A stretch of DNA of 64,000 bases from Naumannella cuiyingiana (GTDB lineage: Bacteria; Actinomycetota; Actinomycetes; Propionibacteriales; Propionibacteriaceae): the NCBI RefSeq assembly GCF_013408305.1, contig NZ_JACBZS010000001.1, forward strand, positions 1,736,001-1,800,000, read 5' to 3'. A program made the position numbers and the translations under genes. Shown here piece after piece: positions 33,158-50,967 of this stretch (its first letter is position 1; the number at the start of each line of letters is the position of its first letter). The notes under the pieces were generated by a model that was given only the letters and a program-made list of their open reading frames with translations, did no database searches and had not been told where the DNA came from.

Positions 33158-35575
<2,418 letters not shown>

Positions 35576-35590
35576 GGGTTTGCGATTGTC

Positions 35591-35602
35591 GCACGATCGT
35601 GC
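35591..35602. repeat. Palindrome after gyrB
   Basis: GCACGATCGTGC is a 12-bp perfect palindrome 15 bp after the gyrB stop. It may help form a terminator or be a regulator site; no T tract follows. Confidence 0.35.
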
Positions 35603-35743
35603 CGGCGGCCCTGACCGCTCGGCGACGTCGGCGATGCTCGGACATGATCAACGTTGTCGAGCGGTCTCCCCGCACCTGGCGGCTCCGAACTATGGCGGCG
35701 CCCGCAACGGCCGTGACAGAATCTGCCTAGATGATGAAACCAT

Positions 35744-35759
35744 TTCCGATATATGGGAT
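35744..35759. promoter_or_regulatory. Island operator 1 (before eda-like/kdgK-like operon)
   Basis: TTCCGATATATGGGAT matches the palindrome TTTCGATATATCGAAA at 12 of 16 positions. It lies 27 bp before the aldolase start. It is the weakest of the recurring sites. Confidence 0.45.
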
Positions 35760-35786
35760 TCAGACACTCGGGCGAAAGGTTGGTCC

Positions 35787-36434
35787 ATGACCGCAGGCCG
35801 CAGACCGGTAGTGCCTGTGAGCCCGGGGGTGATCGCGATCATCCGACTACGGCACATCGCCCCGCCCGAGGAACTGATCGAAGGCCTCGTCGCGGGAGGC
35901 GTCCGAATCGTCGAGGTGACCTTGCCGACTCCCGAGAGTCTCTCCACCATCCGCCGCTGGAGCGCTCGCGACGACGTGCTGGTCGGCGCCGGCACGGTTC
36001 GGACGCCGGGGGATGTCCACTCGGCAGCCGATGCCGGAGCGCGCTTCATCGTCACGCCGACGACGGTCCCGGCTGTGATCGCCGCGGCTCGCGAGCGCGG
36101 CCTTCCGGTGACCTGCGGGGCACTGACCCCGACCGAGATCGACGCGGCTGCGAGCCTCGGTGCGGACTGGATCAAGGTGTTCCCGGTCGAGACGGTTGGC
36201 GGCCCCGCCTATGTGTCGGCGGTCGTCGCGCCACTCGACGACATCGCGCTGGTGCCGACCGGTGGTGTCGATGCGCGACTGGCGGAGCGATACGCAGAGC
36301 TCGGCTGCGCGGGGGTCGGGGTGGGCTCCTGGCTGGTTGACGAGCGGTCCGTCCACGCCGGCGAGTGGCACGACATCCGGTCCAGGGCGCGCGAGATCAC
36401 CGATGCGTGGGCGCGTGGGTCGGAGCGGCGATGA
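35787..36434 (+). CDS. KDPG/KHG aldolase family protein
   Basis: The 215-residue class I aldolase resembles Eda. It has GVIAIIRLRHIAPPEEL, the catalytic Glu in RIVEVTLPTPESL, VGAGTVRTPGDV, the Schiff-base Lys in ADWIKVFPVETVGG and LVPTGGVD. It should cleave a 2-keto-3-deoxy-6-phospho sugar acid to pyruvate and glyceraldehyde 3-phosphate. AAAGG lies 7 bases before the ATG. It overlaps the sugar-acid kinase by ATGA, which pairs the last two steps of the pathway. Confidence 0.88.
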   Translation: MTAGRRPVVPVSPGVIAIIRLRHIAPPEELIEGLVAGGVRIVEVTLPTPESLSTIRRWSARDDVLVGAGTVRTPGDVHSAADAGARFIVTPTTVPAVIAAARERGLPVTCGALTPTEIDAAASLGADWIKVFPVETVGGPAYVSAVVAPLDDIALVPTGGVDARLAERYAELGCAGVGVGSWLVDERSVHAGEWHDIRSRAREITDAWARGSERR

Positions 36435-37372
36435 CTGGCGCGCCCGAAGTGGTGACCATTGGCGAGACGCTCGCCAGCCTCCGGGCAAGTGGCGATCTGC
36501 GCGTCGCTACGCCGGTCTCGCTGTCCATCGCGGGCGCCGAGTCGAACGTCGCGATCGGCCTTGCCCGCCTTGGCCACGCGGTTCGGTGGGCCGGAGTCGT
36601 CGGCGACGACGCGTTTGGCCGACTGATCACCCGAACCTTGCGCGGGGAGGGCGTGCAGACCTCGAGCCGCACGATCGCGTCGCCGACCGGAATGATCGTC
36701 TTCACCGCTCGGCCGCCGACGGCGATCACCGTCGACTATCACCGCCGGGCTTCTGCCGGCTCGGCGCTCGACCTCGCCGACGTCGAGGCAGCGATGGCCG
36801 ATCCGCCCCGCATCCTGCATCTGACCGGGATCACGCCGGCGCTGTCGCCGAGCGCGCTGGCTGCCGTGCGGGCCGCGATCGATCGTGCGAGCGAGCAGGG
36901 TGTCCAGGTTTGCCTGGACGTCAACTACCGATCCCGGCTGTGGTCTCGCGCTGAGGCCCGCGCAACCATCGCGCCCCTCGCGGCGCGGGCCGATCTGATC
37001 ATCGCCTCCGATGATGAACTCGGGCTCGCAGTCGACGTGCCGAGCACCGACCCGCGTACCGGGATCGACACCCTGCTTGGGCACGCGACCGCGGTCATCG
37101 TCAAGCGCGGGTCGCACGGCGCAGCGGCCTACACCCGCGCCGGTGAGGTCCAGGTCGACGCCGTGGCCGTGTCCGCGATCGATCCGGTCGGTGCCGGCGA
37201 CGCCTTCGTGGCCGGGTTTCTGTCGGGAACACTGGATGGCTTGCCGCTGGTCGAATGCATGCAGCGCGGTGCGCTGTTGGGCGCGTTCGCGGTTGCCAGC
37301 ATCGGCGATTGGGAAGGCCTGCCGTTGCGTACCGATCTGGGCCGGCTCGACGAGGAGGGTGTCATACGTTGA
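36431..37372 (+). CDS. PfkB-family carbohydrate kinase, probable 2-keto-3-deoxygluconate kinase
   Basis: The 313-residue ribokinase-fold enzyme has VTIGETLASLR, the N-terminal PfkB motif IAGAESNVAIGLARLGH, VCLDVNYRSRLW and the catalytic Asp in SAIDPVGAGDAFVAGFL. Translational coupling to a KDPG-aldolase-like gene supports 2-keto-3-deoxy-sugar-acid kinase activity (KdgK). The exact epimer is unknown. Confidence 0.85.
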   Translation: MTGAPEVVTIGETLASLRASGDLRVATPVSLSIAGAESNVAIGLARLGHAVRWAGVVGDDAFGRLITRTLRGEGVQTSSRTIASPTGMIVFTARPPTAITVDYHRRASAGSALDLADVEAAMADPPRILHLTGITPALSPSALAAVRAAIDRASEQGVQVCLDVNYRSRLWSRAEARATIAPLAARADLIIASDDELGLAVDVPSTDPRTGIDTLLGHATAVIVKRGSHGAAAYTRAGEVQVDAVAVSAIDPVGAGDAFVAGFLSGTLDGLPLVECMQRGALLGAFAVASIGDWEGLPLRTDLGRLDEEGVIR

Positions 37373-37390
37373 GGTCGGACCGTCCCGACC
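37373..37390. terminator. Short hairpin between convergent kinase and permease genes
   Basis: GGTCGG (37373-37378) pairs with CCGACC (37385-37390) across six bases in a 24-bp convergent gap. Outer GTTGAG and CTCAAC can extend it. Confidence 0.45.
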
Positions 37391-37396
37391 CGACGC

Positions 37397-38323
37397 TCAA
37401 CCCTTGATGGCCCCGGCCGTCAGACCCTCGGCGATCCGCCGCTGCAGGAGCGCGAACACCACCAGCACGGGGACGACCGTGATCATTATCGCGGCGAACA
37501 ACGTGACCCAGTTGCTGCTGTAGGTCGCGGCCTGGCTGAGCTGCCACAGGCCTACCGGCAGCGTCATGTTCTCCTTCGTCCGGATCAGCACGAGTGCATA
37601 GAAGAATTCGTTCCAGTTGTTCAGGAAGCTGATGATCGTGATCGACGCCACGCCGGGGCCGAGTAGCGGGAGGATGATCCCGAAGAAGGTGCGCGCCGGG
37701 CCGGCTCCGTCGATCGCTGCGGCCTCCTCGAGCTGGACCGGCAAGGTACGCATGAAGCCCACCATGACGAAGATGTTGAACGGCAGGTTGTAAGTCGCGT
37801 ACACCAAGATCAGACCGAGCTGGGTGTCCAGCAATCCGATGTCGCGAAGCGTCAGGTACAGCGGGATGAAGGTCACCATCCAAGGGACCATCAGGCCCAG
37901 GATGAACACGCTCAACACGATGCCACTGCCGGGGAACCGAACCCGCGCCAGCGGATAGGCCGCAAGGACGGAGAAAAACACCCCGAGCACGGTGGCTGTC
38001 ACCGCGACGAGGACGCTGTTTCCGAAGAACATGGCCACGCCCCCGGCGTTCCAGGCTTGGCGGTAGTTCTCGAACTCCCACGATCGGGTGAGCGAGAACG
38101 GAGGGCTCGTGATGAACTCGACGTTCGTCTTCAACGAAACGTTGATTACCCAGGCGAAGGCCGCAACCGCCGAGAATGCACCCGCCCCCATCAGCAGGTA
38201 GAAGAACAGATGGAAGGGGCGAAACCTGGCGCGGTCCGAGACCGCCGGACGCCGGTGTCGCCGACGGATCGGTGGACGTTTGGGGCCCGAGTCGGTGGGC
38301 CTGGCGATCGTCTCAGTACTCAA
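37397..38323 (-). CDS. Carbohydrate ABC transporter permease (MalG/UgpE-type)
   Basis: The 308-residue permease has six helices and the cytoplasmic EAA loop EAAAIDGAGPARTFFGIILP that docks the ATPase. The start overlaps the upstream permease by about 11 bases. With the lipoprotein and the other permease it forms a CUT1 importer. No ATPase gene is present in the island, so a shared MsiK-like ATPase is inferred. Confidence 0.92.
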   Translation of the reverse strand: MSTETIARPTDSGPKRPPIRRRHRRPAVSDRARFRPFHLFFYLLMGAGAFSAVAAFAWVINVSLKTNVEFITSPPFSLTRSWEFENYRQAWNAGGVAMFFGNSVLVAVTATVLGVFFSVLAAYPLARVRFPGSGIVLSVFILGLMVPWMVTFIPLYLTLRDIGLLDTQLGLILVYATYNLPFNIFVMVGFMRTLPVQLEEAAAIDGAGPARTFFGIILPLLGPGVASITIISFLNNWNEFFYALVLIRTKENMTLPVGLWQLSQAATYSSNWVTLFAAIMITVVPVLVVFALLQRRIAEGLTAGAIKG

Positions 38324-39191
38324 TGCTGTCTCGCTTCAAGAGCTTGTTGAGAACCAGTGCCGCAGCCATCAGCAACACCACGACAATCACCCCCATCGCC
38401 GCAGCGGAGCCGAAGTCCCCGGTGTCGAAGGCGGTCCGGTACATCACAGTCGCAGGAATGTCGGAGGAGAAGTATGGCCCTCCGTCGGTCATGATGTAGA
38501 CGAACGCAAATGCCTGCAGGGATTGCACCACCCACAAGATGATCAAGGTCCGGAACAAGTCGCTCATCATCGGCAGCATGATCCGGGTGAAGAGCTTCCA
38601 CTCGCCGGCGCCGTCCAGACGCCCGGCCTCGAGGACATCGGCGGGCATCCGCGAGAACCCGGCGGAGATCAGTAGGATCCAGATGCCGATCCCGTGCCAA
38701 ACTGCAACCAGGGCGATCGCGGGAAGAGCGGTGCGGGGATCGCCCAACAGGATCGGAATCAGGTCACCGAAGCCGATGGAGGCGAACGCCGGATTGATCA
38801 GTCCGAGCGTCGGATGAAAGATGAACTTCCACATGAGCGCGACCACGGCGACAGAGAGCACCACGGGCGCGAAGATCAGGAAGCGAAAGACGCGCTCGCC
38901 GTGCAGGCGCTGATTGAACGCCCAGGCGATGGCGATGGCCGGCGGGAAGAGCATGAGACCGCCGACCATCGCCAACAGCACGGCGTGGCCGAGCGATTGC
39001 AGGAAGCGTTCATCGCCGATCACGTCGGCGTACTGGGCCATGCCGACAAAGGAAGCACGTCCGGTGCGGGAGAACTCCTGAGTCGAGAGCTCGACGGTGC
39101 GCGCCAAGGGATACAGGAAGAAGACCGTCAGCAGCAGCGACGCCGGCAGCAGGAAAGGGATCACGATTCGTCGTTGCGATCTCGCAAACAT
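38313..39191 (-). CDS. Carbohydrate ABC transporter permease (MalF/UgpA-type)
   Basis: From the ATG at 39191, with AGGAGG and GGAG upstream, the protein has 292 residues and six helices. Its EAA loop is LEAGRLDGAGEWKLFTRIMLP. An ATG at 39227 would add 12 residues but has no ribosome-binding site. It is the first of the two permeases after the binding protein. Confidence 0.92.
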   Translation of the reverse strand: MFARSQRRIVIPFLLPASLLLTVFFLYPLARTVELSTQEFSRTGRASFVGMAQYADVIGDERFLQSLGHAVLLAMVGGLMLFPPAIAIAWAFNQRLHGERVFRFLIFAPVVLSVAVVALMWKFIFHPTLGLINPAFASIGFGDLIPILLGDPRTALPAIALVAVWHGIGIWILLISAGFSRMPADVLEAGRLDGAGEWKLFTRIMLPMMSDLFRTLIILWVVQSLQAFAFVYIMTDGGPYFSSDIPATVMYRTAFDTGDFGSAAAMGVIVVVLLMAAALVLNKLLKRDSIEY

Positions 39192-39250
39192 CGCTCTCCG
39201 CCCTCCTGACGTTGGCGACCTCGGCATGGCGCGGGAGCGCCGACTGTCGA

Positions 39251-40600
39251 TCAGTTCTTGTGTATCTTCCGTAGCTGCTCGTCCAGACGAGCGAGCGTCT
39301 GCGTGGCATCCTGCTCGCCGAACATCAGCCGTGTCACCTCCGCGTAGACCACGTCATAGGCCTCGGTGTCCTTCATCGCGAACTCTCGTGGCACCAGGGC
39401 CGATGCATCGGCCATCACCGTATCGATGCCGGTCACGCCGGAAGGGCTGGGGACTCCGACAACACCGGAGAGCTCACCGAACTTCTCGGCCCGCTCTGCC
39501 TGCACTTCCGGGCTGGTCACCCGGCGCACCCACTCCAGGGCGAGCGGGATGTTCTCGCTCTTGGCATTGATCGACATCTGTTGCGGTGCCGCCATGATCG
39601 CCTTCTGGTCGCCGGCTCCGCCGGCAACCTCAGGGAAGGGGAGTACGCCGATCTCGAAGTCATCGGGGATCACGTCCTTCATCTCACTGACCAGCCAGCT
39701 ACCCATCAGGATCATCCCGGTCTTGCCCTGGAAGAACTGCGCCTGTGCGGCGGTGAAGTCGGTTCCCTGGAAGCCCGACATCAGGTACCCGCCATCGCGA
39801 AGGTCCTGAACCTTCTGCAGCCCGCGGAGGAATCCGGGGTCATCGGTGATCCTGCCCTTGCCGTTCACCAGCACATCGTTGGCGGTGGTCCATCCGACCT
39901 CGCGCAACCACAGGTTGTCGGACCACATCCCCATGTAGGGCTGATAGAGACCCGTAATGGCGATCGGGTCCACACCGGCCGCCTTGAGGTCGGCCGATGC
40001 CTTCATCAGCTCGTCCCACGTGGTGGGCGGCTTGATCCCGCTCTCTGCGAAGATCTTCTTGTTGTAGAACAGCACCTGGGTCGACAACTCACTGGGTACG
40101 CCGTACACGCCGCCGTTGTCGGGATTGACCATGAACCCCGAGGCCGCCGGGGTGAATGACTCACCCCAGGTCTTGCCGGTTGTCGGGTCCGGCGCGTCCA
40201 GGTAGGGCTTGAGGTCGAGCAGGAAGCCGTCATTGGCCCACACTCGCTGGCTCGGGACGGTGCCGTCGAACATGCCGTAATCGACATCGGGACCGTCGCC
40301 GGAACGCCAGCGTTGTTCCAGCGCCGGGCGGGCCTCGGAGTTGGCAAAGGTCAGCGTGATCTTGGTGCCCGGATAGTCGGCTTCGATCTCACGCGCAAGC
40401 TTCTCGAGGTAGGCCAGTCCCGGGGTTCCCTCGGCAGGGATCACGCCGACCTCGATCGAGCCGGAGATGTTGTCGCGCCACGTGTTGGGATCCGGGCCTT
40501 CTGACGCCGGGGGACCGCCGACAGGCCCACTCGAACAAGCCGCGAGCAAGACGCCGGCCATGGCCAGCGGCAGGCTGAACCTGATGCGCTTGAGTTTCAT
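39251..40600 (-). CDS. Extracellular sugar-binding lipoprotein (SBP family 1)
   Basis: The 449-residue protein has a lipoprotein signal ending LLAAC with lipidated Cys22. The family-1 solute-binding pattern follows: GPDVDYGMFDGTVPSQRVW, GVYGVPSELSTQVLFYNKKIF, PTTWDELMKASADLKAAGVDP and FFQGKTGMILMGSWLVSEM. It should deliver a mono- or oligosaccharide to the two permeases. The promoter at 40601-40720 carries two palindromes. Confidence 0.92.
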   Translation of the reverse strand: MKLKRIRFSLPLAMAGVLLAACSSGPVGGPPASEGPDPNTWRDNISGSIEVGVIPAEGTPGLAYLEKLAREIEADYPGTKITLTFANSEARPALEQRWRSGDGPDVDYGMFDGTVPSQRVWANDGFLLDLKPYLDAPDPTTGKTWGESFTPAASGFMVNPDNGGVYGVPSELSTQVLFYNKKIFAESGIKPPTTWDELMKASADLKAAGVDPIAITGLYQPYMGMWSDNLWLREVGWTTANDVLVNGKGRITDDPGFLRGLQKVQDLRDGGYLMSGFQGTDFTAAQAQFFQGKTGMILMGSWLVSEMKDVIPDDFEIGVLPFPEVAGGAGDQKAIMAAPQQMSINAKSENIPLALEWVRRVTSPEVQAERAEKFGELSGVVGVPSPSGVTGIDTVMADASALVPREFAMKDTEAYDVVYAEVTRLMFGEQDATQTLARLDEQLRKIHKN

Positions 40601-40668
40601 GTGTGCCCCTTCGGTAGCCCGCGTACCCCGCTGGACGACGCCCTATTCACCCGAGAAGATTCGACGCG

Positions 40669-40684
40669 ATTCAATATATCGAAA
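40669..40684. promoter_or_regulatory. Island operator 2 (before the ABC transporter operon)
   Basis: ATTCAATATATCGAAA matches TTTCGATATATCGAAA at 14 of 16 positions. It is the best match of the recurring sites and lies 69 bp before the binding-protein start. Confidence 0.6.
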
Positions 40685-40691
40685 ATATAAC

Positions 40692-40710
40692 TACGATTTC
40701 GTAAATCGTA
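40692..40710. promoter_or_regulatory. Second palindrome in the ABC operon promoter
   Basis: TACGATTT and AAATCGTA are perfect 8-bp arms around CGT. The sequence differs from the island operator and may bind another regulator, for example a LacI- or GntR-type protein encoded elsewhere. Confidence 0.5.
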
Positions 40711-40750
40711 AGGGACAGGTCAGCCGCTGACAAGGGGTCTACGCGGGTCC

Positions 40751-41740
40751 TCACTCCTCGTCCTCGATCGGTCCCAGGTACGGCAGGAACTCGGCGAACT
40801 CGATCAGGAACCGGTCCACTGCGTCGCGCTCGTGGTCGTCGAGGTCGCGGCGCGGGGCGCGGCAGTGGTCGCTGCGGAAGAGCCCGCGACGGACCGAGAT
40901 CAACTTCTCCGCGGCGATGATCAGCTCGGTGTCGAGCATCCAGTAGGAGGTGAACGGCAACAGGCGGGCGTGCAGCCGATCGGCGTCATCGAAACGACCG
41001 GCCTCGTACAAGCGCCAGATCTCCTGGTAGATCTCGGTGAACGAGCAGCCGGGCTGGGTGCCCACCGCACCCCGGCGAATGGCGTCGGGCAGTTGCACGC
41101 CCGCATAGCCCTCGACGGCGGGGATCGGAGGGTCGAGCCTGGAGAGCTCGGTGATGAACGGCCCTGGCGGGCTCGACTCGACCTTGACCAGCGTGAGATT
41201 CGGGTGATCGCGAGCGATGGCAGCAAGCCGGGACACGTCGAGCGCGGTGCCGGTCTCGTTCGGGGCGTACTGGAGCACCACGGGCGTGGTCGGCACCTCG
41301 GCCAGCACCGCCCGGATGTGCGCCTCGATCATGGGCGCGGGCGGTTTGAGCAAGTGCGGCGGGAGCAGATTGATTGCCTTCGCGCCGACCGACACCGACC
41401 ACGCCGCCCGCTCGGCGGCCAGTCGTGTCGCGTGATCCTGCACAGCCGCGATCACCACCGTGTCCGGGAAGGCGCGGGCCTCGGACACGAGCACCTCCAT
41501 CAGGCATGCGCGCTCGGTCTCGGAAAGCTTGTAGAACTCGCCGGCGAAGCCCGGGAACATCACGCTGGCGACGCCGGTGCCGAGGACGTAGCGCACCACG
41601 CGGCGAAAACCGGCCAGATCGACATCGCCGGACTCGGTGAACGGCACCTCGAGCACGGGCGACACCCCGCGAATGGCCCGGGCGGCGGCGAGTCCCTCGA
41701 GTGGGTCGTTGGCCCCCGGTCGAAGTCTCGTCATCGTCAT
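40751..41740 (-). CDS. DapA/NanA-superfamily lyase or dehydratase
   Basis: The 329-residue TIM-barrel protein has the family pattern SVMFPGFAGEFYKLSETERA, the tyrosine in VVLQYAPNETG and the Schiff-base Lys in LTLVKVESSPPG. The usual GTTGE loop reads GFAGE, so the carboxylate-binding threonines are replaced. Relatives act on 2-keto-3-deoxy sugar acids (aldolase) or 5-keto-4-deoxyglucarate (dehydratase). Two ATGs are possible, 41740 and 41734. Confidence 0.85.
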   Translation of the reverse strand: MTMTRLRPGANDPLEGLAAARAIRGVSPVLEVPFTESGDVDLAGFRRVVRYVLGTGVASVMFPGFAGEFYKLSETERACLMEVLVSEARAFPDTVVIAAVQDHATRLAAERAAWSVSVGAKAINLLPPHLLKPPAPMIEAHIRAVLAEVPTTPVVLQYAPNETGTALDVSRLAAIARDHPNLTLVKVESSPPGPFITELSRLDPPIPAVEGYAGVQLPDAIRRGAVGTQPGCSFTEIYQEIWRLYEAGRFDDADRLHARLLPFTSYWMLDTELIIAAEKLISVRRGLFRSDHCRAPRRDLDDHERDAVDRFLIEFAEFLPYLGPIEDEE

Positions 41741-41819
41741 GGTTGATCCCCTTTTGGCCACGTGGAGGCTGGTTTCGGTGTCGCGCGAGGTCGGACCGAG
41801 ATCCGCGACCGGCTGCTCC

Positions 41820-42563
41820 TCATCCGGATCCGAGACCGAGCAGTGCTGCGATGGTCCCGCCGAGTACGCGAGCTCGCGCGGGTTTGGCAAGCGGCCAGTC
41901 GACGACGCGCCGTAGTTCGCCGACGGTGGTGGCGTACGGCAGGTCGGAGGAGAACACAAGGCGCGATGAGCCGATCTGCGGGTCACGCTCGAATTCGCTG
42001 AGGACGGTGTCCCAAGGTGCGTAACAGGTGTCACCGTAGAGGTTCGGCGCGAGGCGCAGCGCCGGGGCTGCGTCGATCCAGAAGTCGGTCGCGCCGCTGC
42101 GGCCCATCACGAACGCAACTCCCGGGTGTCGACGCGCCAGGGCAGCCGCGGGCAGCGGCAGATGTCCGGGCGGCGTACCGGTGCGAACGTAGACCGGCCA
42201 GTCGTGTGCGTCGGCGAAGTCGATGAGGGGATCGACCAACCCGTCCAGCAGGTCGAAGCCCTGCAAGCTGGAATCGATGGCGAGCGCGCGGGCGCCATGA
42301 TCACGTGCCCAACCCAACTCGGTCAGGGCGTCCGCGCGGCGCCAAGGATTCGCCACGGCGTACGCCAGCAGCCGCCCGCCCGAGCGCTCCGCGGCGGTGG
42401 TTGTGGCAGCGTTGCCGGCGCGGTTGTGGTAGGCGATGTCACCCTCGCTCGGCGCAATCAAGGCTCGGTCGATGCCGTTTCGATCCATCGTCGCCAGCAG
42501 ATCATCGACTGCCAGCGCGCAGTCGCGCTGCGCTCCGATGCGGACGTGCGCGTCGATGATCAT
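41820..42563 (-). CDS. Amidohydrolase_2 paralogue with lost metal ligands
   Basis: The 247-residue protein matches its two neighbours in length and strand order but not in catalytic residues. The N-terminal HxH reads DAHVRIG, the third-strand position reads VYVRTGTPPG and the MGH position reads FVMGRSGA. The final Asp (VFSSDLPYA) remains. It is therefore unlikely to bind metals in the usual way. It overlaps the preceding gene by ATGA and ends the five-gene coupled operon. Confidence 0.75.
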   Translation of the reverse strand: MIIDAHVRIGAQRDCALAVDDLLATMDRNGIDRALIAPSEGDIAYHNRAGNAATTTAAERSGGRLLAYAVANPWRRADALTELGWARDHGARALAIDSSLQGFDLLDGLVDPLIDFADAHDWPVYVRTGTPPGHLPLPAAALARRHPGVAFVMGRSGATDFWIDAAPALRLAPNLYGDTCYAPWDTVLSEFERDPQIGSSRLVFSSDLPYATTVGELRRVVDWPLAKPARARVLGGTIAALLGLGSG

Positions 42564-43447
42564 GACCGCGCCGCCCGTGGATCGGGCAGCGCGAGCGCTT
42601 CGAGGGCTTCGGCGTGGATGATCTTCTCGATCACCTCGGCCGGGATCCGCGGCAATCGTGACCCCTCGACGATGTCGTTCACCGCGCGCAGTCCGGCGAT
42701 GGCTTCGGCCGTGGTGGCGATGGGGAAGTCCGAGCCGAGCAGCAGCTTTCCCGCCGCGCCCCACTCGACGGCATACAGCAACGACTCATAACACACCCAC
42801 GGGCGCAGGTAGATCGAGGAGACGTCGGCGTACACGTGCGGGTGCTTGCGGATCGTCACGACTGTCTCGCGCGCCCAGGGGTGTCCCATGTGCGCCATCA
42901 CGATGCGCAGCTCCGGGCAGGCGATCGCGATCTCGTCGGTCACCAGTGGGAACGTGTAGCGCAGCGGAGCGTGCCGGATCGGGGACGCGCCCTGGTGGAA
43001 CAGGATCGGCAGCCCCTCCCGTTCGCAGTACCGGTAGAACTGCATCGCCGCGTCCCCGAGCGGGTCGAACTCCTGGTAGTTGGCGCCGAGCTTGACTCCG
43101 AGCAAACCGAGCGAGCGCGCCTCCTCCACCTGTTCCCAGACGTCGGGCGCCATGGGATTCACCGACATGAAGCCGATCCGCTTGTCGGGTCGCGCTGCGA
43201 CGTACTCGGCCGTCGCGACGTTCGTCCTCTCCGGCGGGTAGTCCAGGCCGGTCGAGGACACCGGATCGTCGACCGCGATGTTGAACACGATCGCGACATC
43301 GGCGGCATCGGCGGCGGCATCGAAGTCGGCCCAGCTGTTGGAGGTGATCACCGCGCGATCGGTACGCCAGGCGTCGTAGCTTCGGAGCTCCGCGTTCGGG
43401 ACCTCGCGCTCGTGGGTCGGGGTGTGGGTGTGGACGTCGACGATCAT
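42560..43447 (-). CDS. Amidohydrolase_2 family hydrolase
   Basis: The 295-residue TIM-barrel hydrolase has HxH in IVDVHTHTPTHE, LLGVKLGANYQEFDP, His in ILFHQGASP, His in IVMAHMGHPW and Asp in LLLGSDFP. Relatives include lactonases for sugar acids and decarboxylases. Coupling to a MocA-type dehydrogenase makes a lactonase role attractive but unproven. Both ends overlap neighbours by ATGA. Confidence 0.85.
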   Translation of the reverse strand: MIVDVHTHTPTHEREVPNAELRSYDAWRTDRAVITSNSWADFDAAADAADVAIVFNIAVDDPVSSTGLDYPPERTNVATAEYVAARPDKRIGFMSVNPMAPDVWEQVEEARSLGLLGVKLGANYQEFDPLGDAAMQFYRYCEREGLPILFHQGASPIRHAPLRYTFPLVTDEIAIACPELRIVMAHMGHPWARETVVTIRKHPHVYADVSSIYLRPWVCYESLLYAVEWGAAGKLLLGSDFPIATTAEAIAGLRAVNDIVEGSRLPRIPAEVIEKIIHAEALEALALPDPRAARS

Positions 43448-44208
43448 CGGGTGCTCTTCTCCAGCAGACGGCGCGGATTGTCCACGAGCATTGCCTGCCG
43501 TTGCTCGGGTGTGACACCCCACTCATCGATCTCTCGGATCCGTGCCACGGCGAAGTCCTGGCTTGCCTTGTCCGACAGGCCGGCATCCGTGCCGAACAGC
43601 ACCTTGTGCGCCGGCGCCCGATCCAAGATCGTCTTGGCTGCGTAGGGCGGTGTGCCGCAGATGCACAGGTAGAGGTTCTCGGTGTCCTGGGTGCAGACCA
43701 ATGCCTCGCGCCAGAGGTCGTGGAGGCCGCCGTGACCCAGGATGATCGGCACGTTCGGGTGCCGCCTCGCCAAGGTGGCGATCTGGGTCGGCGTCGCGTA
43801 GGGCGGCGTCCCGTCGTGGCAGAGCACCAGACCGTTGTGCGTGGCGACAACCTCCAGGATCGGGTCCAGCGCGACTTCGTGGACGCTGAATCCCTGTAGC
43901 CACGGGTGTAGCTTCACCCCGCGAAGGCCCAACTCGGTAAACGTCCGCTCGATCTCCGCGGCCGCGGACGGCTTGCGTGGGCTGTAGGTGCCGAAGCCGA
44001 TCAGCCGGTCAGGATACTGAGCAACGAATCGGGCCAGATCGTCGTTGGCCTCGGGGGTTGAGTCGAACAGGCCGTCATGGCTGAGCACGACTGCACGATC
44101 GATGCCGCAGGTATCCATGAAATCGATGAAGTCATCGGCGCTGAAGGTCGTTCCGCCGAGCCAGGACGTGCCACGCCAGATCGGGGTGTGCGTGTGGAAG
44201 TCGATCAT
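43444..44208 (-). CDS. Amidohydrolase_2 family hydrolase
   Basis: The 254-residue hydrolase has an intact set of ligands: HxH in MIDFHTHTPIW, His in GVKLHPWLQGF, His in LVLCHDGTPPY, His in IILGHGGLHD and Asp in LFGTDAGLSD. It is the most canonical of the three paralogues. Overlaps with creatininase-like and amidohydrolase genes show translation as one unit. Confidence 0.87.
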   Translation of the reverse strand: MIDFHTHTPIWRGTSWLGGTTFSADDFIDFMDTCGIDRAVVLSHDGLFDSTPEANDDLARFVAQYPDRLIGFGTYSPRKPSAAAEIERTFTELGLRGVKLHPWLQGFSVHEVALDPILEVVATHNGLVLCHDGTPPYATPTQIATLARRHPNVPIILGHGGLHDLWREALVCTQDTENLYLCICGTPPYAAKTILDRAPAHKVLFGTDAGLSDKASQDFAVARIREIDEWGVTPEQRQAMLVDNPRRLLEKSTR

Positions 44209-44948
44209 GGCGCCAGGACACCGAACCGGGTCGACAATGCGGTGATCAGCTCCCGCCAGTAGGTCGCGCCGGCCGCCCGACTGGCGCGGTCGGGATGGTC
44301 GCTGTATCCGTCGATCTCGGCCCAGGCCGCGCGGCTGTGAGTCTCCATCCCCGGGCCGGCGACGATCGGGGTGGTGGCTGCGGGCGGGTCCGGGCGATGC
44401 GGCGCCCGGCGTACCAGGTCCGGTCGCAGCTCAAGCATGATCGAGGTTTCGAACGCGCCGGCGTGACCGGGCACCGGGGGATCGCCCGGTTCGCCGGACC
44501 GGTCGAGGGCGCGCCAGTAATCGATGTGAGTGACACTCAGCTCGCTGCGGGCGGCCGCCGCGCCGGCCGCGGCCTGGCAGATCCCTGAGTTCCCCCCGTG
44601 CCCGTTGAGCAGAAGCACCCGTGTGGCGCCTGCCCCGGCGATCGAGGCAAGCAGATCGGTGATCACCGTCAACAGGGTTTCCGCGCGCACCGAGAGGGTT
44701 CCGCCGAACGGGAGGTGATGATCGGATGCGCCGATGCAGAGCGGAGGAGCGATCACGAAGCTCCCACCGGACTCGGCGGCGTGATCCGCGGCGGCCCGGG
44801 CGAGCGCGCGGGTGATCATGAAGTCGGTTCCGGTGGGCAGGTGAATGCCGTGCTGTTCCACAGCTCCCAGCGGGACGATCACAAGCGCGTTGGGCAGCAG
44901 GTCCGCCAGGGTCGCGCGGTCGCAGGCGGCCCACTCCACGACGCTCAC
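44205..44948 (-). CDS. Creatininase family hydrolase
   Basis: From GTG 44948 the protein has 247 residues. It has the creatininase metal motifs LGAVEQHGIHLPTGTD, LLLNGHGGNSG and HAGAFETSIMLELRP. Family members hydrolyse cyclic amides or related bonds (creatinine, formamidopyrimidine) and some act in cofactor maturation. The substrate is unknown; the context suggests a sugar-derived lactone or amide. It overlaps the MocA gene by GTGA. Confidence 0.85.
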   Translation of the reverse strand: MSVVEWAACDRATLADLLPNALVIVPLGAVEQHGIHLPTGTDFMITRALARAAADHAAESGGSFVIAPPLCIGASDHHLPFGGTLSVRAETLLTVITDLLASIAGAGATRVLLLNGHGGNSGICQAAAGAAAARSELSVTHIDYWRALDRSGEPGDPPVPGHAGAFETSIMLELRPDLVRRAPHRPDPPAATTPIVAGPGMETHSRAAWAEIDGYSDHPDRASRAAGATYWRELITALSTRFGVLAP

Positions 44949-45970
44949 GGCTGTTCCACCGCGGGTGTGAGCACGGATCGCTCGGCGAGCAACGCCAGTT
45001 GATGGCTGATCGTCAGCGCGCGGCGGCCCTCGGCCAGCCCCGGCTGCGGCTGGTCGGTGACGCCGGTGGCGAGTTCGACGAACCGCGCGAGCTGACGGTC
45101 GAAGCAGCGGGCGACGCGATCTCCTGTCGGGGCGTACTGCTCGGAGCCGGCGGCGGTGGTGACGGTCAGGGCGAAGGTGGCACCGTCCAGGCTGGCCAGC
45201 CCGTGATCCCCGATCACTGTCAGGGAGGTGGCCGGCAGCGCATCGGTCAGCCATCCGAATTCGACCAGTGCGGGGACGCCGCCGTAGTCGAGTCGACCGC
45301 CGATGAGATTGGGTGCGCCCAGACCGTCACGGGTGGGATGTGACCAGGCATCGTGGAGGATCGGGTCGGCGTCAAGGAGATAACTCAGCCAGTCGAAGAC
45401 GTGGGACCCCTCGTGCACCGCGGGGCTGCCGTGCCGGAGGGTGCGCTCGATGAGGGCCGTGTGCGCTCGGTCTCGCGTCCGCTCCTCGTCGTAGATGTGT
45501 GCGCGGACCAGCAGCCGGTCACCGAGGAGTCCGCTCGTGATCACCTCGCGCAACCGCTGCATGGCCGGATCATGCCGATAGGTCAGTCCGATCTGGACGC
45601 GCCGAACCTCGGACGGCGTCAGCTCGTCGTACGCGGCCGCTTCGGCCACGGATGTGGCAACCGGCTTCTCGGCAAGTACGAAACGGCCCGACCGAGCGGC
45701 CGCCACCACCAGTGCCGGCGTAACCCACGGAGGCGTCGCGAGGACCACGCCGGCCACATCGTCGCGGGCGAGCGCTTCGTCGAGGCTCCGGTACGCCTCG
45801 ACCGGCCGACCATCGGGACGTGCAGCGGATTGCTCCGCGGCAACGGCGGCGCTCACCGTCGGCTCGGGCTCCACCACGGCGACCAACTCGACGGCGGGAT
45901 TGCGTGCGACGGCGGGCAGGTGTGCCGCCCGCGCGATCTGGCCCAGCCCGACGAGGGCGATCCCAACCAT
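44945..45970 (-). CDS. Gfo/Idh/MocA family oxidoreductase
   Basis: The 341-residue enzyme has the N-terminal Rossmann motif VGIALVGLGQIARAAHLPAV, the EKP motif in FVLAEKPVATS and a C-terminal alpha/beta domain with HEGSHVFDWLSYLL. The family oxidises sugars or cyclitols with NAD(P). It heads the coupled operon MocA / creatininase / three amidohydrolases. The start lies 9 bp from island operator 3 and has only a weak ribosome-binding site. Confidence 0.88.
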   Translation of the reverse strand: MVGIALVGLGQIARAAHLPAVARNPAVELVAVVEPEPTVSAAVAAEQSAARPDGRPVEAYRSLDEALARDDVAGVVLATPPWVTPALVVAAARSGRFVLAEKPVATSVAEAAAYDELTPSEVRRVQIGLTYRHDPAMQRLREVITSGLLGDRLLVRAHIYDEERTRDRAHTALIERTLRHGSPAVHEGSHVFDWLSYLLDADPILHDAWSHPTRDGLGAPNLIGGRLDYGGVPALVEFGWLTDALPATSLTVIGDHGLASLDGATFALTVTTAAGSEQYAPTGDRVARCFDRQLARFVELATGVTDQPQPGLAEGRRALTISHQLALLAERSVLTPAVEQP

Positions 45971-45978
45971 GGATTAAC

Positions 45979-45994
45979 TTTCGCTATTTCGAAT
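45979..45994. promoter_or_regulatory. Island operator 3 (before the MocA operon)
   Basis: TTTCGCTATTTCGAAT matches TTTCGATATATCGAAA at 13 of 16 positions, including a complete left half-site. It sits 8 bp upstream of the dehydrogenase start. Confidence 0.55.
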
Positions 45995-46049
45995 TGGTTT
46001 CCTCAGTATTGAAGGTGATGTTAGCGTCGGCGCGAAAGGCCGCGCAAGG

Positions 46050-46862
46050 TCATCCGACCGAGACCTTGCCCGGCTGCCCGGGATGCGACGAGTGGTGCCC
46101 GAGCTGGTCGGAGACGATGCGGGCGATCACGCGCAGGCCCGCCACTGCGCGCTCGAAGGGATCGCCGGTGAGGGAGCTCTCGAAGCCGGTGACGCCCACA
46201 GATCCCGCCGCCGAGCCCTCGGCGTCGAAGAACGGAACGGCAACGCAGGAAATGCCCGCCTGCTCCTCCTCACGCTCCACGGCGTACCCGAGGTCGCGTA
46301 CCTCGCTCAACTGGCGGAGGAAGGCTTCCCGCTTCGGCGGCAGCGCGCCGGGCCCGTCGCCCTGGCGCAGCTGTGCCAACAGCGGCTCAAGGCGTTCGGT
46401 GTCCAGGTGCGCGGCGATCGCCTTGCCGAGCGCCGTCAGGTTGTATGGCGCCATCTTTCCCGGGTAGGTGTCGAACTGGATGAAGCCCTTCGGCGCCGCC
46501 TTGGCGATGTAGACCACGGAGGCGCCACTGAGCACTCCGATGTGCACGGGCATCTCGAGTTCGTCGGCCAGCTGCTGCAACTCGGCCTGCGCAACCGATG
46601 CCAGGTCGACATCGCGAACGAGGCGGGTGGCGAGTCCGTACAGCCCGAGGGTCGCCCGCCAGAAGTGACTGCGTCCGACGACCTTGCGCGCGGCGTATCC
46701 GCGCATCTCCAGCGTGTACGCGATTGAGGCACAGGTCGCGATCGGGACATCGGCCGCCTTGGCCAGCGCGGTCAGTGTCAGGCCGTCGCCAGCGTGCACG
46801 AGCGCCTCGAGGATATTGAGGGTACGAGCCGCTGAAGGGGAGGGGGAATCGGCAACCGACAT
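46050..46862 (-). CDS. IclR family transcriptional regulator
   Basis: The 270-residue regulator has an N-terminal winged helix (ARTLNILEALVHAGDGLTLT, LAKAADVPIATCASI). Its IclR effector domain has VHIGVLSGASVVYIAKAA, LTALGKAIAAHL and ISCVAVPFFDAEG. IclR proteins often control catabolism of aromatic or sugar acids. It is the only regulator in the island and the best candidate to bind the recurring palindrome. An ATG at 46934, directly after the preceding stop, would add 24 residues and has a GGGAG upstream. Confidence 0.9.
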   Translation of the reverse strand: MSVADSPSPSAARTLNILEALVHAGDGLTLTALAKAADVPIATCASIAYTLEMRGYAARKVVGRSHFWRATLGLYGLATRLVRDVDLASVAQAELQQLADELEMPVHIGVLSGASVVYIAKAAPKGFIQFDTYPGKMAPYNLTALGKAIAAHLDTERLEPLLAQLRQGDGPGALPPKREAFLRQLSEVRDLGYAVEREEEQAGISCVAVPFFDAEGSAAGSVGVTGFESSLTGDPFERAVAGLRVIARIVSDQLGHHSSHPGQPGKVSVG

Positions 46863-46934
46863 GGCGAAAGAATAGTTCGTAGGACCCGTCGGGAACCGGC
46901 CCAGTTCTGCGGGACCCCCCGCCGGTGAGGCCAT

Positions 46935-48080
46935 CTACCGGACTCCCTGTTCGCTGGACCCGTCTCGCAGCCGCGCAGACAGGTGATCATCGAGTACGAC
47001 TCCCAGCCCGGGGGCGTCGCCGAGCCTGGCCCGGACGCCGTCCGTGTCGATCCCGATCCGCACGACGTCGCTGTCGTAGTAGGCCGCGCCAATGATGTCC
47101 GAAGGGATGGCGCCGAGCGCCTCCAGGGCACAGGCCACGTGGAGCTGCGCGGCCGCACCGACCCCGAGTTCGCCATTGGACCCGATCACGATGTCGACAC
47201 CCGCGGCGTGCGCGATGCGACCCATGGTGACGGCCCGGCCCGGCCCGCCGCTCTTACCGACGTAGAGGCTGACCACGTCGAGCGCGTCCGCGCGGATGGC
47301 GGCCATCAGGTCTTCGGAGCCGAACACGGTCTCGTCACCAACGACGGGGATGCCGAGCCCGCGCAGGTCCCGCATGCCGACCAGGTCGGCCGGAGCCACC
47401 GGTTGCTCAAAGAATGCGGGACCGAACTCGAGCAGGCGCTCTCCGGCCCGGCGGGCGTCGGCCCGACTGTAACCCCCGTTGGCATCCAGGCCGATCATTG
47501 TGTCGGGGCCGACCAGGGCCCGCAGCTCGGCCATCCGCTCGACGTCGGAATCGACATCGAGTCCGATCTTGATCTTGAACGCGCGAAAACCGGACTCCTG
47601 CGCTCGGGCGAGTCCGGCACGCAGCCGTCCACCATTGCCGCTCAGTGAACACTTGATCGCCACCTCGGTACGCATCGGCCCGCCGAGTGCCACCGCAAGC
47701 GGCACGTCGAGCGCCTTGGCGTAGGCGTCCCAGAGTGCAATGGACACACCCGCCTTGGTGAACGGATTGCCGGCCAGGGCGCGATCCATCCGCGCCTCGA
47801 GCGCGGCCACCGGCACCAGCGGTTGTCCGATCAGTGCCGGAACCAAGGCGCGGCCGATGACGTGCTCAGCGGTGGCCGAATCCTCTCCGCTCCACAACAG
47901 CGTGCCGCTCACCTCGCCGATGCCTTCGATCCCCGCGGTGGTGACGATGCGTACCAGCAGGAAGTCCGAGCGGTCGTGGCTACCGCGAGCTCCCGAGACG
48001 AGCAACTCCGGGCGCACCGTGGGGCTGACCCGGGCTGTGTGGATCGCCCGGATCCGATCGGTACGCAGGGTCCTGCTCAC
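46935..48080 (-). CDS. Enolase-superfamily enzyme (muconate-lactonizing-like)
   Basis: The 381-residue protein has the lysine pair in FRAFKIKIGLDVDSD. Metal ligands are in IGLDANGGYS, FFEQPVAP and VVGDETVFG, and a lysine occurs in LYVGKSGGPGR. The K-x-K plus late Lys pattern resembles the muconate-lactonizing subgroup rather than mandelate racemase. Relatives include lactone cycloisomerases of sugar-acid pathways. Its GTG start overlaps the stop of the secreted glycosidase-like gene. Confidence 0.88.
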   Translation of the reverse strand: MSRTLRTDRIRAIHTARVSPTVRPELLVSGARGSHDRSDFLLVRIVTTAGIEGIGEVSGTLLWSGEDSATAEHVIGRALVPALIGQPLVPVAALEARMDRALAGNPFTKAGVSIALWDAYAKALDVPLAVALGGPMRTEVAIKCSLSGNGGRLRAGLARAQESGFRAFKIKIGLDVDSDVERMAELRALVGPDTMIGLDANGGYSRADARRAGERLLEFGPAFFEQPVAPADLVGMRDLRGLGIPVVGDETVFGSEDLMAAIRADALDVVSLYVGKSGGPGRAVTMGRIAHAAGVDIVIGSNGELGVGAAAQLHVACALEALGAIPSDIIGAAYYDSDVVRIGIDTDGVRARLGDAPGLGVVLDDHLSARLRDGSSEQGVR

Positions 48081-50722
48081 CCGAACAGGACCCGACCGGG
48101 ATCAGAGAAGCCGGAGGCGATCACCTGAGGATCATAGGGATAGATGTAGGCAAACGTCGACGAGGCGTTCCACCAGGCACGGATGTTTCCCGATGAATCG
48201 ATGTTGATCAGCTCCGCGCGCTGATCATGGTCGAGCTGGGCGAACCGAACCCTGGTCGGGTCAGTGAAGCCGGACGCGATCACGGTGCTCGGATCCTTGA
48301 AGGAGTTGGCCACCGTCGCGGTCTGATTGCGCCAGCCGCTGATCGTGCCGTTGCTGTTCACGTTGATCAGGTCGGCGAGTTTGTCACCGTTCAGGTCGGC
48401 GAACTGCACGCGGCCCGGGTCGTTGAAACCCCAGCCGACCTCCAGCGGGCCGTGCACGAAGGAGCCGGCGACCGTGTCCGTGGCATTCCACCACGCCCGG
48501 ATGGTTCCCGAGGTTTCGACGTTGATCAACTCCGCTCGGCCGTCGCCGTCGAGATCGGCGAACCGAACCCGTGCCGGGTCGGCAAAGCCGCTGGCGATGC
48601 GTGTCGGCGTACCGACGAATGATTTGGTCACGGTCGCCGAGGCGTTCCACCAGGCGTCGATCGTACCGTCGGAGTTGATCATGATCCGCTCGGTTCGACC
48701 GTCGCCGTCGAGATCGGCGAAGCGCAGTCGACGCGGGTCGGTGACCCCCGTAGCGATCTGCAGCGGACTTCCCGTGTAGGAGCTCTCGACGGTCGGTGAC
48801 CCGTTCAGCCAGGCGCGCGTCGTCCCGTCGGCCGCGACCTGCACCAGTTCTGCCATCGTGTCGCCGTTCAGGGATGCCGTCCCGGGCAGCGCGGTGCCGG
48901 ATGCCAGCCGGACCAGCTCGTCGCGGGCGGCACGGAGGTTGCCGATGTCGTAGGGCCGGTCGGCGGGGTTGTAGGACGGCGCGACGCGGTCGATCAGTGC
49001 CTTCACCGCAGCCGGATCGACCTTGGCGGCGAGTGCCAGCAGTTCGTAGTCCTCGGCGCCGTCGCGTTGCGACTGGGAGCGGATTGTCGCTTTGATCGAA
49101 GTGTTCTTCGTGTCCGGATGGACGATGTATTGGTCTCCCTTGAAGGCGTTCGCCGTCCCACCCACGCCGTACTGCGGGTCGGTCATGGTGTCGAAGGACT
49201 TGGTGCTGCCGATGCCGGGGGTCCAGAAGTTCCACGCCCAGTGCAGATATCCGGTCACGCCGTACTTGAAGCTTGCCCACGGCAGGACGCGACCCTCGTA
49301 GACCTTGCTGTCCACGAACCGGTTCATCGCGTAATAGCCGTGGGTGCCCGAGCAGCACATGTTGTACACCCAGGTCCTGACCCCCTTGGACCGCATCGCG
49401 TCGTAGGACGACCGGTTGGCCTCGTAGTTGTCGACCGTCGGAACCACGACGTTCGCACCCTGGGAGACGGCATAGCTGTGCGCACCGAGACTCCAGCTCG
49501 CGTCACCGGCCGGGACGTCGGGCGCGACGGCGCGAAGCTTGCTCATGAAGTACGCGTACTGCTGCTGGCTGTTGGCGGTGTCCGGCTCGTCCGCGACCTG
49601 CTGGTACCACAGCTTGTACCACCCCTTCTGTCGCAGGTGGTCGAACAGGGCGGGCAGGTACTGGTCGATCCAATTGCGACTAGTCGCGGAGTCGACGGGG
49701 GACAGCCCGGTGGTCAAACGTCCGGCACCGTCGCGCTGCAGCACATAGGTGAGGTAGTTGACGCCGGCGTTCTGGGTCGGGTCGGGATGGCCGATGGCAA
49801 CACCCTCGAGCACCTTCACCATGTCGCGGTCCAGGTAGTACTGCACGTACTGGTCGAACCTGCTCCAGTTGAAGGTGTACTTGCCGGTCGCCGGGTCGAG
49901 CGTGGTACCGCCGTCGAGCAGCAGCGCGGGACTGTTGATGAAGATGCCGTTGACCCGCGTCTCCTTCATCGCGTCGGCCATCTTCCCCACGATCGTCCAC
50001 CATTGCGGTGTCCAGCGCTCGTAGCCATAGAACGCGGTGATCGGATCGCTGGCGTGGTTGGTGGCGGTCGTCGTGTTGTACCAGGCACCGACGATCTGTT
50101 GATGGATCAGGGTGGTGTAGGCACTCTTCCCCGGGTTCGGCAGCGTAGCTGCGCCGACCTCGACCGAGTAGGGGATCGTGAGCGCCCCCGCGGTCGTGTT
50201 GACGGTCAACTTGCCGCGGTACTGGCCGGGTTCGGCGGCTGCCGGCGCATAGACGGTGACCCAGATCGGCCGCGGGGTGTTCGCCTGGAGGCCGATCGAG
50301 GCGTCGTTGGACAGCGTTTCGGGGAACCATCCCGGCGCGTTGGACGCCATCGTCGGATAGCGCCATTCCGAACCATCCCCGACCGCGGTGTTGCTGTTGC
50401 TCTCCAGTTGAACGTATTCGACGTAGTTCGTCCGGACGTTGCTTGCCGCGATCTGGTTGGTGCCCGCGGTCAGCGCGGAACTGGTCACCGAGGTGATCGT
50501 ATTGGCCGCGTCGGACTTGAGGACGACCTGGAACGACTCGTATTCGTTGCGCGCCATGACGAGCGACGCCTTCTGCGAGCGCGCCGGCTCGCTGTAGAAG
50601 ACGTTCACCGATGAGTCTGCGATCCACCAGCTGAGCGATCCCGCCGCGTTCGCGTGCGGCGCGGTGCCGGTGATCAGGATCGTGGCGAGGATTGTTGCTG
50701 CGGCAAGGCGGCGTATGCGCAT
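48077..50722 (-). CDS. Secreted DUF4091 glycoside-hydrolase-like protein with FG-GAP repeats
   Basis: The 881-residue protein has a signal peptide of about 26 residues and an N-terminal beta domain. The DUF4091 catalytic-like region (GH123-related) includes WYKLWYQQVADEPDTAN, YLHWAWNFWTPG and DGAEDYELLALAAKVDP. About 220 C-terminal residues form five FG-GAP/VCBS repeats of 53 residues (RFADLDGDGR..), ending partway into a sixth at RVLFG. It likely attacks a glycan outside the cell. The start at 50722 has AAGGA upstream. Confidence 0.85.
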   Translation of the reverse strand: MRIRRLAAATILATILITGTAPHANAAGSLSWWIADSSVNVFYSEPARSQKASLVMARNEYESFQVVLKSDAANTITSVTSSALTAGTNQIAASNVRTNYVEYVQLESNSNTAVGDGSEWRYPTMASNAPGWFPETLSNDASIGLQANTPRPIWVTVYAPAAAEPGQYRGKLTVNTTAGALTIPYSVEVGAATLPNPGKSAYTTLIHQQIVGAWYNTTTATNHASDPITAFYGYERWTPQWWTIVGKMADAMKETRVNGIFINSPALLLDGGTTLDPATGKYTFNWSRFDQYVQYYLDRDMVKVLEGVAIGHPDPTQNAGVNYLTYVLQRDGAGRLTTGLSPVDSATSRNWIDQYLPALFDHLRQKGWYKLWYQQVADEPDTANSQQQYAYFMSKLRAVAPDVPAGDASWSLGAHSYAVSQGANVVVPTVDNYEANRSSYDAMRSKGVRTWVYNMCCSGTHGYYAMNRFVDSKVYEGRVLPWASFKYGVTGYLHWAWNFWTPGIGSTKSFDTMTDPQYGVGGTANAFKGDQYIVHPDTKNTSIKATIRSQSQRDGAEDYELLALAAKVDPAAVKALIDRVAPSYNPADRPYDIGNLRAARDELVRLASGTALPGTASLNGDTMAELVQVAADGTTRAWLNGSPTVESSYTGSPLQIATGVTDPRRLRFADLDGDGRTERIMINSDGTIDAWWNASATVTKSFVGTPTRIASGFADPARVRFADLDGDGRAELINVETSGTIRAWWNATDTVAGSFVHGPLEVGWGFNDPGRVQFADLNGDKLADLINVNSNGTISGWRNQTATVANSFKDPSTVIASGFTDPTRVRFAQLDHDQRAELINIDSSGNIRAWWNASSTFAYIYPYDPQVIASGFSDPGRVLFG

Positions 50723-50729
50723 GATGATC

Positions 50730-50765
50730 CTTTGAAATATCGAAAATACCTTTGTATTATCGAAT
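50730..50765. promoter_or_regulatory. Island operator 4, two sites (before the glycosidase gene)
   Basis: CTTTGAAATATCGAAA (50730-50745) matches TTTCGATATATCGAAA at 13 of 16 positions. CTTTGTATTATCGAAT (50750-50765) matches at 10. Their 20-bp spacing puts both on one face of the helix. Confidence 0.55.
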
Positions 50766-50967
50766 GGACTGACCATAGCGGTAGCGAGTTCGATCGATCA
50801 AGACCTGCTGACCCCGGACGGGCCCCTGGCGGCGCGAGCCAGATCACGGCGGGTGTCCGACCTCGCAGATCCGCGGTTTGGCGGGCTCAGGCGATATCAT
50901 GGACCGGATTGCGTACCCGCCCCCGGAGCGCCGCTGAGGCGCCCGGGAGAAACGAGGATCATCGAGC

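What the first reader, a model, noticed from the sequence alone, without database searches (positions are those of the whole stretch)
41820..42563. Third amidohydrolase paralogue has lost its metal-binding histidines
The two neighbouring paralogues keep HxH, a mid-barrel His and a late His. In this protein the same positions read HVR, VRTG and MGRSG, so three histidines have become arginine. The gene is intact and coupled to the others by ATGA. Repeated His-to-Arg change suggests selection for a new use, such as binding an anionic sugar acid or regulating the active paralogues.
Basis: seen in the sequence. Interest (0 to 1): 0.6.

Follow-up and report, generated by a model that had tools for sequence, protein, structure and literature searches.

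The report
Metal-less enzyme twin with conserved arginines
The gene encodes an enzyme look-alike that has lost its metal site but is preserved across many actinobacteria beside an intact sister enzyme, and the same intact-plus-metal-less pairing, once fused into one protein, recurs in other gene clusters, which suggests a two-part enzyme that has not been described in anything I could search.

Summary
The 247-aa protein at 41820-42563 (-), here P1, is a PF04909 (Amidohydro_2) TIM barrel in which three metal-ligand histidines are arginine (R8, R127, R155); H6 and D207 remain. This is not decay. In 30 orthologues R8 and R127 never vary and position 155 is Arg or Lys. P1 always accompanies an intact paralogue (P3, 43444-44208) in a conserved sugar-acid-type operon. 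A diverged second copy, beside its own intact P3 copy, also lacks the metal site but has Ala and Val at two of the Arg positions, so loss of metal plus pairing is older than the Arg set. The pairing recurs beyond P1. In five genomes, 14 of 16 Amidohydro_2 proteins lacking at least three of five ligands lie next to another Amidohydro_2 gene, against 13 of 72 others. A distantly related 'type II' set repeats it in all 26 loci read, with largely mirrored trees, and in seven Jiangella species the two halves form one protein. Best reading: P1 is a conserved pseudoenzyme subunit working with P3. A metal-free catalyst binding an anionic ligand is the main rival. No complex or activity has been shown.

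The parts
41820..42563 (-). P1: metal-less Amidohydro_2 paralogue, 247 aa
   Evidence: ORF, PF04909 60.5 bits against cut-off 26.4, AlphaFold2 TIM barrel pLDDT 92.2
42540..42542 (-). codon CGC of R8 (second His of HxH in paralogues)
   Evidence: R in 30/30 orthologues
42183..42185 (-). codon CGC of R127 (strand-5 metal His in paralogues)
   Evidence: R in 30/30 orthologues
42099..42101 (-). codon CGC of R155 (strand-6 metal His in paralogues)
   Evidence: R 23, K 6, gap 1 of 30
42546..42548 (-). codon of H6, retained first His of HxH
   Evidence: 30/30
41943..41945 (-). codon of D207, retained strand-8 Asp
   Evidence: 29/29
42560..42563 (-). ATGA overlap, P2 stop and P1 start
42560..43447 (-). 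P2: intact Amidohydro_2 paralogue, 295 aa (HxH, K119, H151, H186, D240)
43444..44208 (-). P3: intact Amidohydro_2 paralogue, 254 aa (H5, H7, K99, H131, H159, D208), likely partner of P1
   Evidence: co-occurrence
44205..44960 (-). creatininase-family gene of the same operon (ORF can extend to 45254)
   Evidence: PF02633; conserved next to P3
44945..45970 (-). Gfo/Idh/MocA oxidoreductase
46050..46934 (-). IclR-family regulator
46935..48080 (-). enolase-superfamily (MR_MLE) protein, likely acid-sugar dehydratase
40751..41740 (-). DapA/DHDPS-family protein directly after P1
37397..40600 (-). sugar-type ABC transporter: two permeases and binding protein
35553..37372 (+). KDPG-type aldolase and PfkB (2-keto-3-deoxygluconate-type) kinase
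   Evidence: also divergent to the operon in L026, L029, L038, L041

Best explanation
P1 is a conserved pseudoenzyme: an Amidohydro_2 barrel that no longer binds the catalytic metal and works as an obligate partner of the intact paralogue P3. The likely arrangement is a heteromer in which P1 takes the place of one protomer of the homodimers known in this family, supplying residues or a ligand-binding site to P3, much as one ACMSD protomer supplies an arginine to the other. Its own pocket, now held by R8, R127, R/K155, E40, D97, H6 and D207 instead of metal, is kept by selection, presumably to bind an anionic intermediate or for the inter-subunit contact. Shown: loss of ligands, conservation, fold prediction, obligate gene pairing with P3, recurrence of such pairs and a natural fusion in a related set. 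Inferred: the physical complex, the absence of metal, the ligand and the effect on P3.
For: Orthologues keep R8 and R127 in 30/30, R/K155 in 29/29 with letters, D97 and E40 in 28/28. P1 evolves nearly as slowly as P2 and P3. High-confidence TIM barrel for P1 and P3, same closest PDB folds. Every locus with enough upstream DNA has P3, 24 of 24; all ten P3-bearing genomes in a class sample of 394 have P1; two Kribbella-family genomes with P2 alone lack both P1 and P3. A second Jiangella copy, P1', also metal-less, lies beside its own intact P3', and P1+P1' and P3+P3' are each a clade (100/99, 100/98). Survey: 14 of 16 ligand-poor Amidohydro_2 genes adjoin another Amidohydro_2 gene against 13 of 72, Fisher p 2.6e-7; in five genomes not chosen for pairs 2 of 3 against 4 of 43. 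Type II pairs: 26 of 26 loci intact plus metal-less, largely mirrored trees, fused in one ORF in seven Jiangella species. Precedents read: ACMSD is active only as a dimer because the neighbour gives an Arg (PMC9021598); inactive pDHO subunits are needed for ATCase (PMC7053772).
Against: No complex was predicted or observed; only single chains could be modelled. The P1 pocket is as strictly conserved as an active site, more than a mere scaffold needs. P1 often abuts P2, with P3 separated by P2 or also by the MR_MLE gene. Gene pairing, mirrored trees and fusion also fit two successive enzymes of a pathway. The fusion is in the type II set, not in P1-P3. The survey genomes were chosen because they hold P1 or similar genes; the unbiased set has only three ligand-poor members.
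Confidence: 0.58

Rival explanations
1. P1 is itself an active, metal-independent enzyme of the pathway, for example a lactone isomerase, lactonase or epimerase, in which the arginines bind and polarise a carboxylate or lactone and H6/D207 do acid-base chemistry.
For: The whole pocket (H6, R8, E40, D97, R127, R/K155, D178, D207) is nearly invariant. The operon looks like a sugar oxidation, lactone opening, dehydration, KDG kinase and KDPG aldolase route, where isomerase or lactonase steps are expected. Metal-free members of the superfamily (LigI, galactarolactone isomerase) are known to me from memory; not confirmed here.
Against: The sister copy P1' lacks two of the three Arg and D97 yet stays beside P3'. 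Type II metal-less partners mostly lose four or five ligands and share few invariant residues. P1 was never found without P3.
Confidence: 0.27
2. P1 is a ligand-sensing regulatory protein that adjusts P3 (or another operon enzyme) when an anionic intermediate binds its Arg pocket.
For: Conserved charged pocket without metal plus obligate link to P3. Overlaps with the best explanation.
Against: The operon already has an IclR regulator; nothing shows allostery.
Confidence: 0.12
3. P1 is a decaying duplicate.
For: Three ligands lost; Fodinicola (L046) has a frame-broken copy, possibly draft error.
Against: Intact and strongly conserved in 30 orthologues over two classes with the same Arg; pN/pS near that of the intact neighbours.
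Confidence: 0.02
4. P1 still binds a metal through H6, D207 and other residues.
For: First His and strand-8 Asp are kept.
Against: Second His, strand-5 and strand-6 His are Arg/Lys, and the strand-4 Lys is Ala in P1; cationic side chains at the site should repel metal.
Confidence: 0.04

Closest known systems
PF04909 Amidohydro_2 decarboxylases (ACMSD, gamma-resorcylate decarboxylase, LigW) and uncharacterised 3cjp/3irs
   Same: Same TIM-barrel fold: 3cjp Z 25.5, rmsd 2.4 over 228; 3irs Z 24.8, rmsd 2.6 over 237; 2dvu Z 24.4, rmsd 2.4 over 237. ACMSD works as a dimer with an Arg from the neighbour.
   Different: These enzymes keep the metal ligands (human ACMSD His6, His8, His174, His224, Asp291); P1 has three of them as Arg. 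ACMSD is a homodimer of identical active chains.
Pseudo-dihydroorotase (pDHO) of class A2 ATCases and fungal Ura2
   Same: A metal-ligand-less amidohydrolase-superfamily chain kept as a partner of an active enzyme.
   Different: Different branch of the superfamily; its partner is a transcarbamoylase, not a homologous intact amidohydrolase.
Metal-independent lactonase LigI and galactarolactone isomerase
   Same: Amidohydro_2/COG3618 fold said to act without metal (from memory); LigI-like 2ffi is in the fold list, Z 21.9, rmsd 3.0 over 232.
   Different: No close sequence match; P1 carries Arg at three ligand positions and is tied to an intact paralogue.
Type II Amidohydro_2 pairs of Jiangella and relatives (this work)
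   Same: Tandem intact plus metal-less homologues; fused in seven Jiangella species.
   Different: Metal-less half has a different residue pattern (VDLEE, GYR, GTGAP) and usually loses the Asp as well; P1 does not group with it in the free tree, though one origin is not rejected (p-AU 0.107).

Membership tests
PF04909 Amidohydro_2 (fold family) | profile score above curated cut-off | tested here: met
   60.5 bits against 26.4
PF04909 Amidohydro_2 (fold family) | beta/alpha barrel fold | tested here: met
   AlphaFold2 pLDDT 92.2 and matches to family structures
Metal-dependent amidohydrolase (active PF04909 enzyme) | HxH on strand 1 | tested here: not met
   HVR; R8 invariant in 30 orthologues
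Metal-dependent amidohydrolase (active PF04909 enzyme) | His on strands 5 and 6 | tested here: not met
   R127 and R/K155
Metal-dependent amidohydrolase (active PF04909 enzyme) | Asp on strand 8 | tested here: met
   D207 29/29
Metal-dependent amidohydrolase (active PF04909 enzyme) | bound divalent metal | not testable with these tools
   needs metal analysis of purified protein
Pseudoenzyme partner (pDHO-like) | homologue lacking catalytic ligands, conserved by selection | tested here: met
Pseudoenzyme partner (pDHO-like) | physical complex with the active enzyme | not testable with these tools
   only gene pairing and a fusion in a related set
Pseudoenzyme partner (pDHO-like) | member of the dihydroorotase branch with ATCase as partner | tested here: not met
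   P1 is PF04909 and lies beside PF04909 genes
ACMSD-type dimer | Arg from the neighbouring subunit completes the active site | not testable with these tools
LigI / galactarolactone isomerase (metal-free COG3618) | close sequence or profile match | tested here: inconclusive
   fold-level match only; no sequence-level PDB match to them listed

The most novel reading that the evidence does not exclude
Amidohydro_2 proteins form a wide, undescribed class of two-part enzymes in which an intact metal-bearing subunit is obligately joined to a metal-less homologue that completes or controls the active site. The arrangement arose at least once and possibly several times in actinobacteria, includes natural fusions, and P1-P3 is one widespread form of it, with an arginine-lined pocket in place of the metal.
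Probability: 0.45. Interest if true: 0.75.

Novelty: new variant of a known kind. Interest (0 to 1): 0.6.

Why it matters
Annotation calls every one of these genes 'amidohydrolase'. If the metal-less members are obligate partners, single-gene expression screens of Amidohydro_2 enzymes would miss the real enzyme, and sugar-acid pathways in actinobacteria could be assigned by expressing pairs. The fused Jiangella proteins offer a single construct on which to test the idea, and the conserved arginines in P1 offer clear point mutants.

Tried and rejected
Decay was rejected by orthologue conservation. 'His to Arg is the general rule' was rejected: P1' and type II partners lose ligands to other residues. 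P2 as the obligate partner is less likely: P2 occurs without P1 and P3 in genomes G036 and G054, and lies apart from the P3-P1 pair in Pseudonocardia L021. One origin for all metal-less partners could be neither shown nor rejected. NCBIfam gave no family for the three proteins. Paper searches for amidohydrolase pseudoenzymes, tandem or inactive amidohydrolase paralogues and metal-independent lactonases gave nothing describing such pairs; the library holds only open-licence papers.

Full report
What is in the window. Three Amidohydro_2 (PF04909) genes overlap by ATGA on the minus strand: P3 (43444-44208), P2 (42560-43447) and P1 (41820-42563). P3 and P2 have the full set of metal ligands of the family. 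P1 has R8, R127 and R155 where the others have the second His of HxH, the strand-5 His and the strand-6 His; H6 and D207 are retained. P3's strand-4 Lys and the His two residues on (K99, H101) are A95 and D97 in P1.

Conservation. Close orthologues (59-75% identical) were found in 25 GTDB species contigs and several relatives, from Propionibacteriaceae, Pseudonocardiaceae, Micromonosporaceae, Jiangella, Nakamurella, Nonomuraea, Kribbella, Actinopolymorpha and, in another class, Conexibacter. In 30 sequences R8 and R127 are invariant, position 155 is R (23) or K (6), and H6 and D207 do not vary where present; E40 and D97 are invariant in the 28-row alignment. Over 24 loci holding all three genes, mean amino-acid difference is 0.32 for P1, 0.26 for P2 and 0.29 for P3, and pN/pS 0.47, 0.39 and 0.43; synonymous sites are near saturation, so these are only relative. 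P1 is under purifying selection close to that of its intact neighbours.

Structure. AlphaFold2 gives confident barrels for P1 (pLDDT 92.2) and P3 (91.5). The best solved matches to P1 are 3cjp (Z 25.5, rmsd 2.4, 228 aligned), 3irs (24.8, 2.6, 237) and resorcylate decarboxylase 2dvu (24.4, 2.4, 237); P3 has the same top two. Profile alignments place R127 opposite the strand-5 His of LigW-type decarboxylases, R155 opposite the strand-6 His, and D207 opposite the strand-8 Asp.

Operon. Around P1 are a DapA-family gene, ABC transporter, creatininase-family gene, Gfo/Idh oxidoreductase, IclR regulator, enolase-superfamily protein, KDPG-type aldolase and PfkB kinase. The same set recurs around orthologues, so this is a sugar or sugar-acid catabolic operon; the substrate is unknown and the pathway order is inference.

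Partner. Where upstream DNA is available every P1 locus has P3 (24 of 24 genome-contig loci; L022 and L045 end at contig edges). In a class sample of 394 genomes all ten with strong P3 matches also have P1. Genomes G036 and G054 of the same order have P2 but neither P1 nor P3. In Pseudonocardia L021 P3 is directly before P1 while P2 lies about 6 kb further on. Seven Jiangella genomes carry a second, diverged cluster with P1' directly beside P3'. P1' reads DAHVA, YVVTG, MGRSG and SSDAP: metal site lost, only the strand-6 Arg shared; P3' is intact. P1 with P1' and P3 with P3' each form a supported clade. Metal loss and pairing with an intact P3 thus predate this split, and R8, R127 and D97 are particular to P1.

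A wider rule. PF04909 members of five genomes (88 matches) were aligned and their five ligand positions read. Sixteen lack three or more; 14 of these are within 400 bases, same strand, of another Amidohydro_2 gene, against 13 of 72 others (Fisher p 2.6e-7). These genomes were picked partly because they hold P1 or similar genes, and some ligand-poor members are copies of one lineage, so the p-value overstates the independence. In five genomes not picked for that, 2 of 3 ligand-poor members adjoin another, against 4 of 43 (one-sided p about 0.04, worked out by hand from the counts). A large part of the rule is a 'type II' pair family. In 26 loci read, each pair has one intact and one metal-less member; the two halves give largely mirrored trees. 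In seven Jiangella species they are one open frame: in the reference a 545-aa protein with two PF04909 stretches, metal-less half first. Whether P1 and the type II metal-less clade share one loss is open (p-AU 0.107).

How it most likely works. ACMSD of this family forms dimers in which the neighbour's Arg completes the active site, and the monomer is inactive (PMC9021598). An inactive, zinc-ligand-less dihydroorotase is a required subunit of Pseudomonas ATCase (PMC7053772). By analogy I read P1 as the metal-less subunit of a P1-P3 heteromer. The conserved Arg pocket probably binds an anion or shapes the contact. The complex, the lack of metal and the ligand are inferred. Against it: gene pairing and fusion also fit two successive enzymes, and the strict pocket conservation fits a metal-free catalyst.

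Verdict. Filed as a new variant of a known kind (pseudoenzyme partner), with the recurrence of such pairs in Amidohydro_2 as the more novel point.

Noticed in passing
window 35553-50776, between gyrB 33506-35575 and gyrA 50968-53706: The whole catabolic cluster, with third-position GC mostly lower than its surroundings, sits between gyrB and gyrA. In G005 and G006 of the family the two genes are about 110 and 40 bases apart; in the same-genus G001 about 3 kb of other genes lie there, so this interval seems to accept insertions.
   Followed up: partly
L165:2459-4096 and L205, L206, L226-L229: Natural fusion of a metal-less and an intact Amidohydro_2 domain in one ORF (545 aa in L165) in seven Jiangella species.
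   Followed up: yes
L168:2535-5507 and L237: Two divergently oriented intact-plus-metal-less Amidohydro_2 pairs back to back.
   Followed up: partly
L167:2510-3957: A second P1-like gene in Pseudonocardia (HVR, YVRGG) beside a P3-like gene that has itself lost ligands (HTR, GCCGG, GSG); both members appear metal-less.
   Followed up: no
L289 and L291 (G086 C94:32907-34903, C6:14222-16123): Two more tandem Amidohydro_2 pairs with one ligand-poor member, in a different subfamily that has Asp and Glu at two of the ligand positions.
   Followed up: no
L046:6001-6730: The Fodinicola P1 copy is broken by a frame shift (possibly draft error), and its genome has only a partial P2 match with a stop.
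   Followed up: no
window 48077-50776: 899-aa protein with a GH123-type catalytic domain and FG-GAP repeats at the end of the cluster next to gyrA.
   Followed up: no
L172 (G557 C177): In a genome of another class, a pair of P1/P3-like genes where the second has lost only the strand-5 His (FICSC), perhaps an early stage.
   Followed up: no
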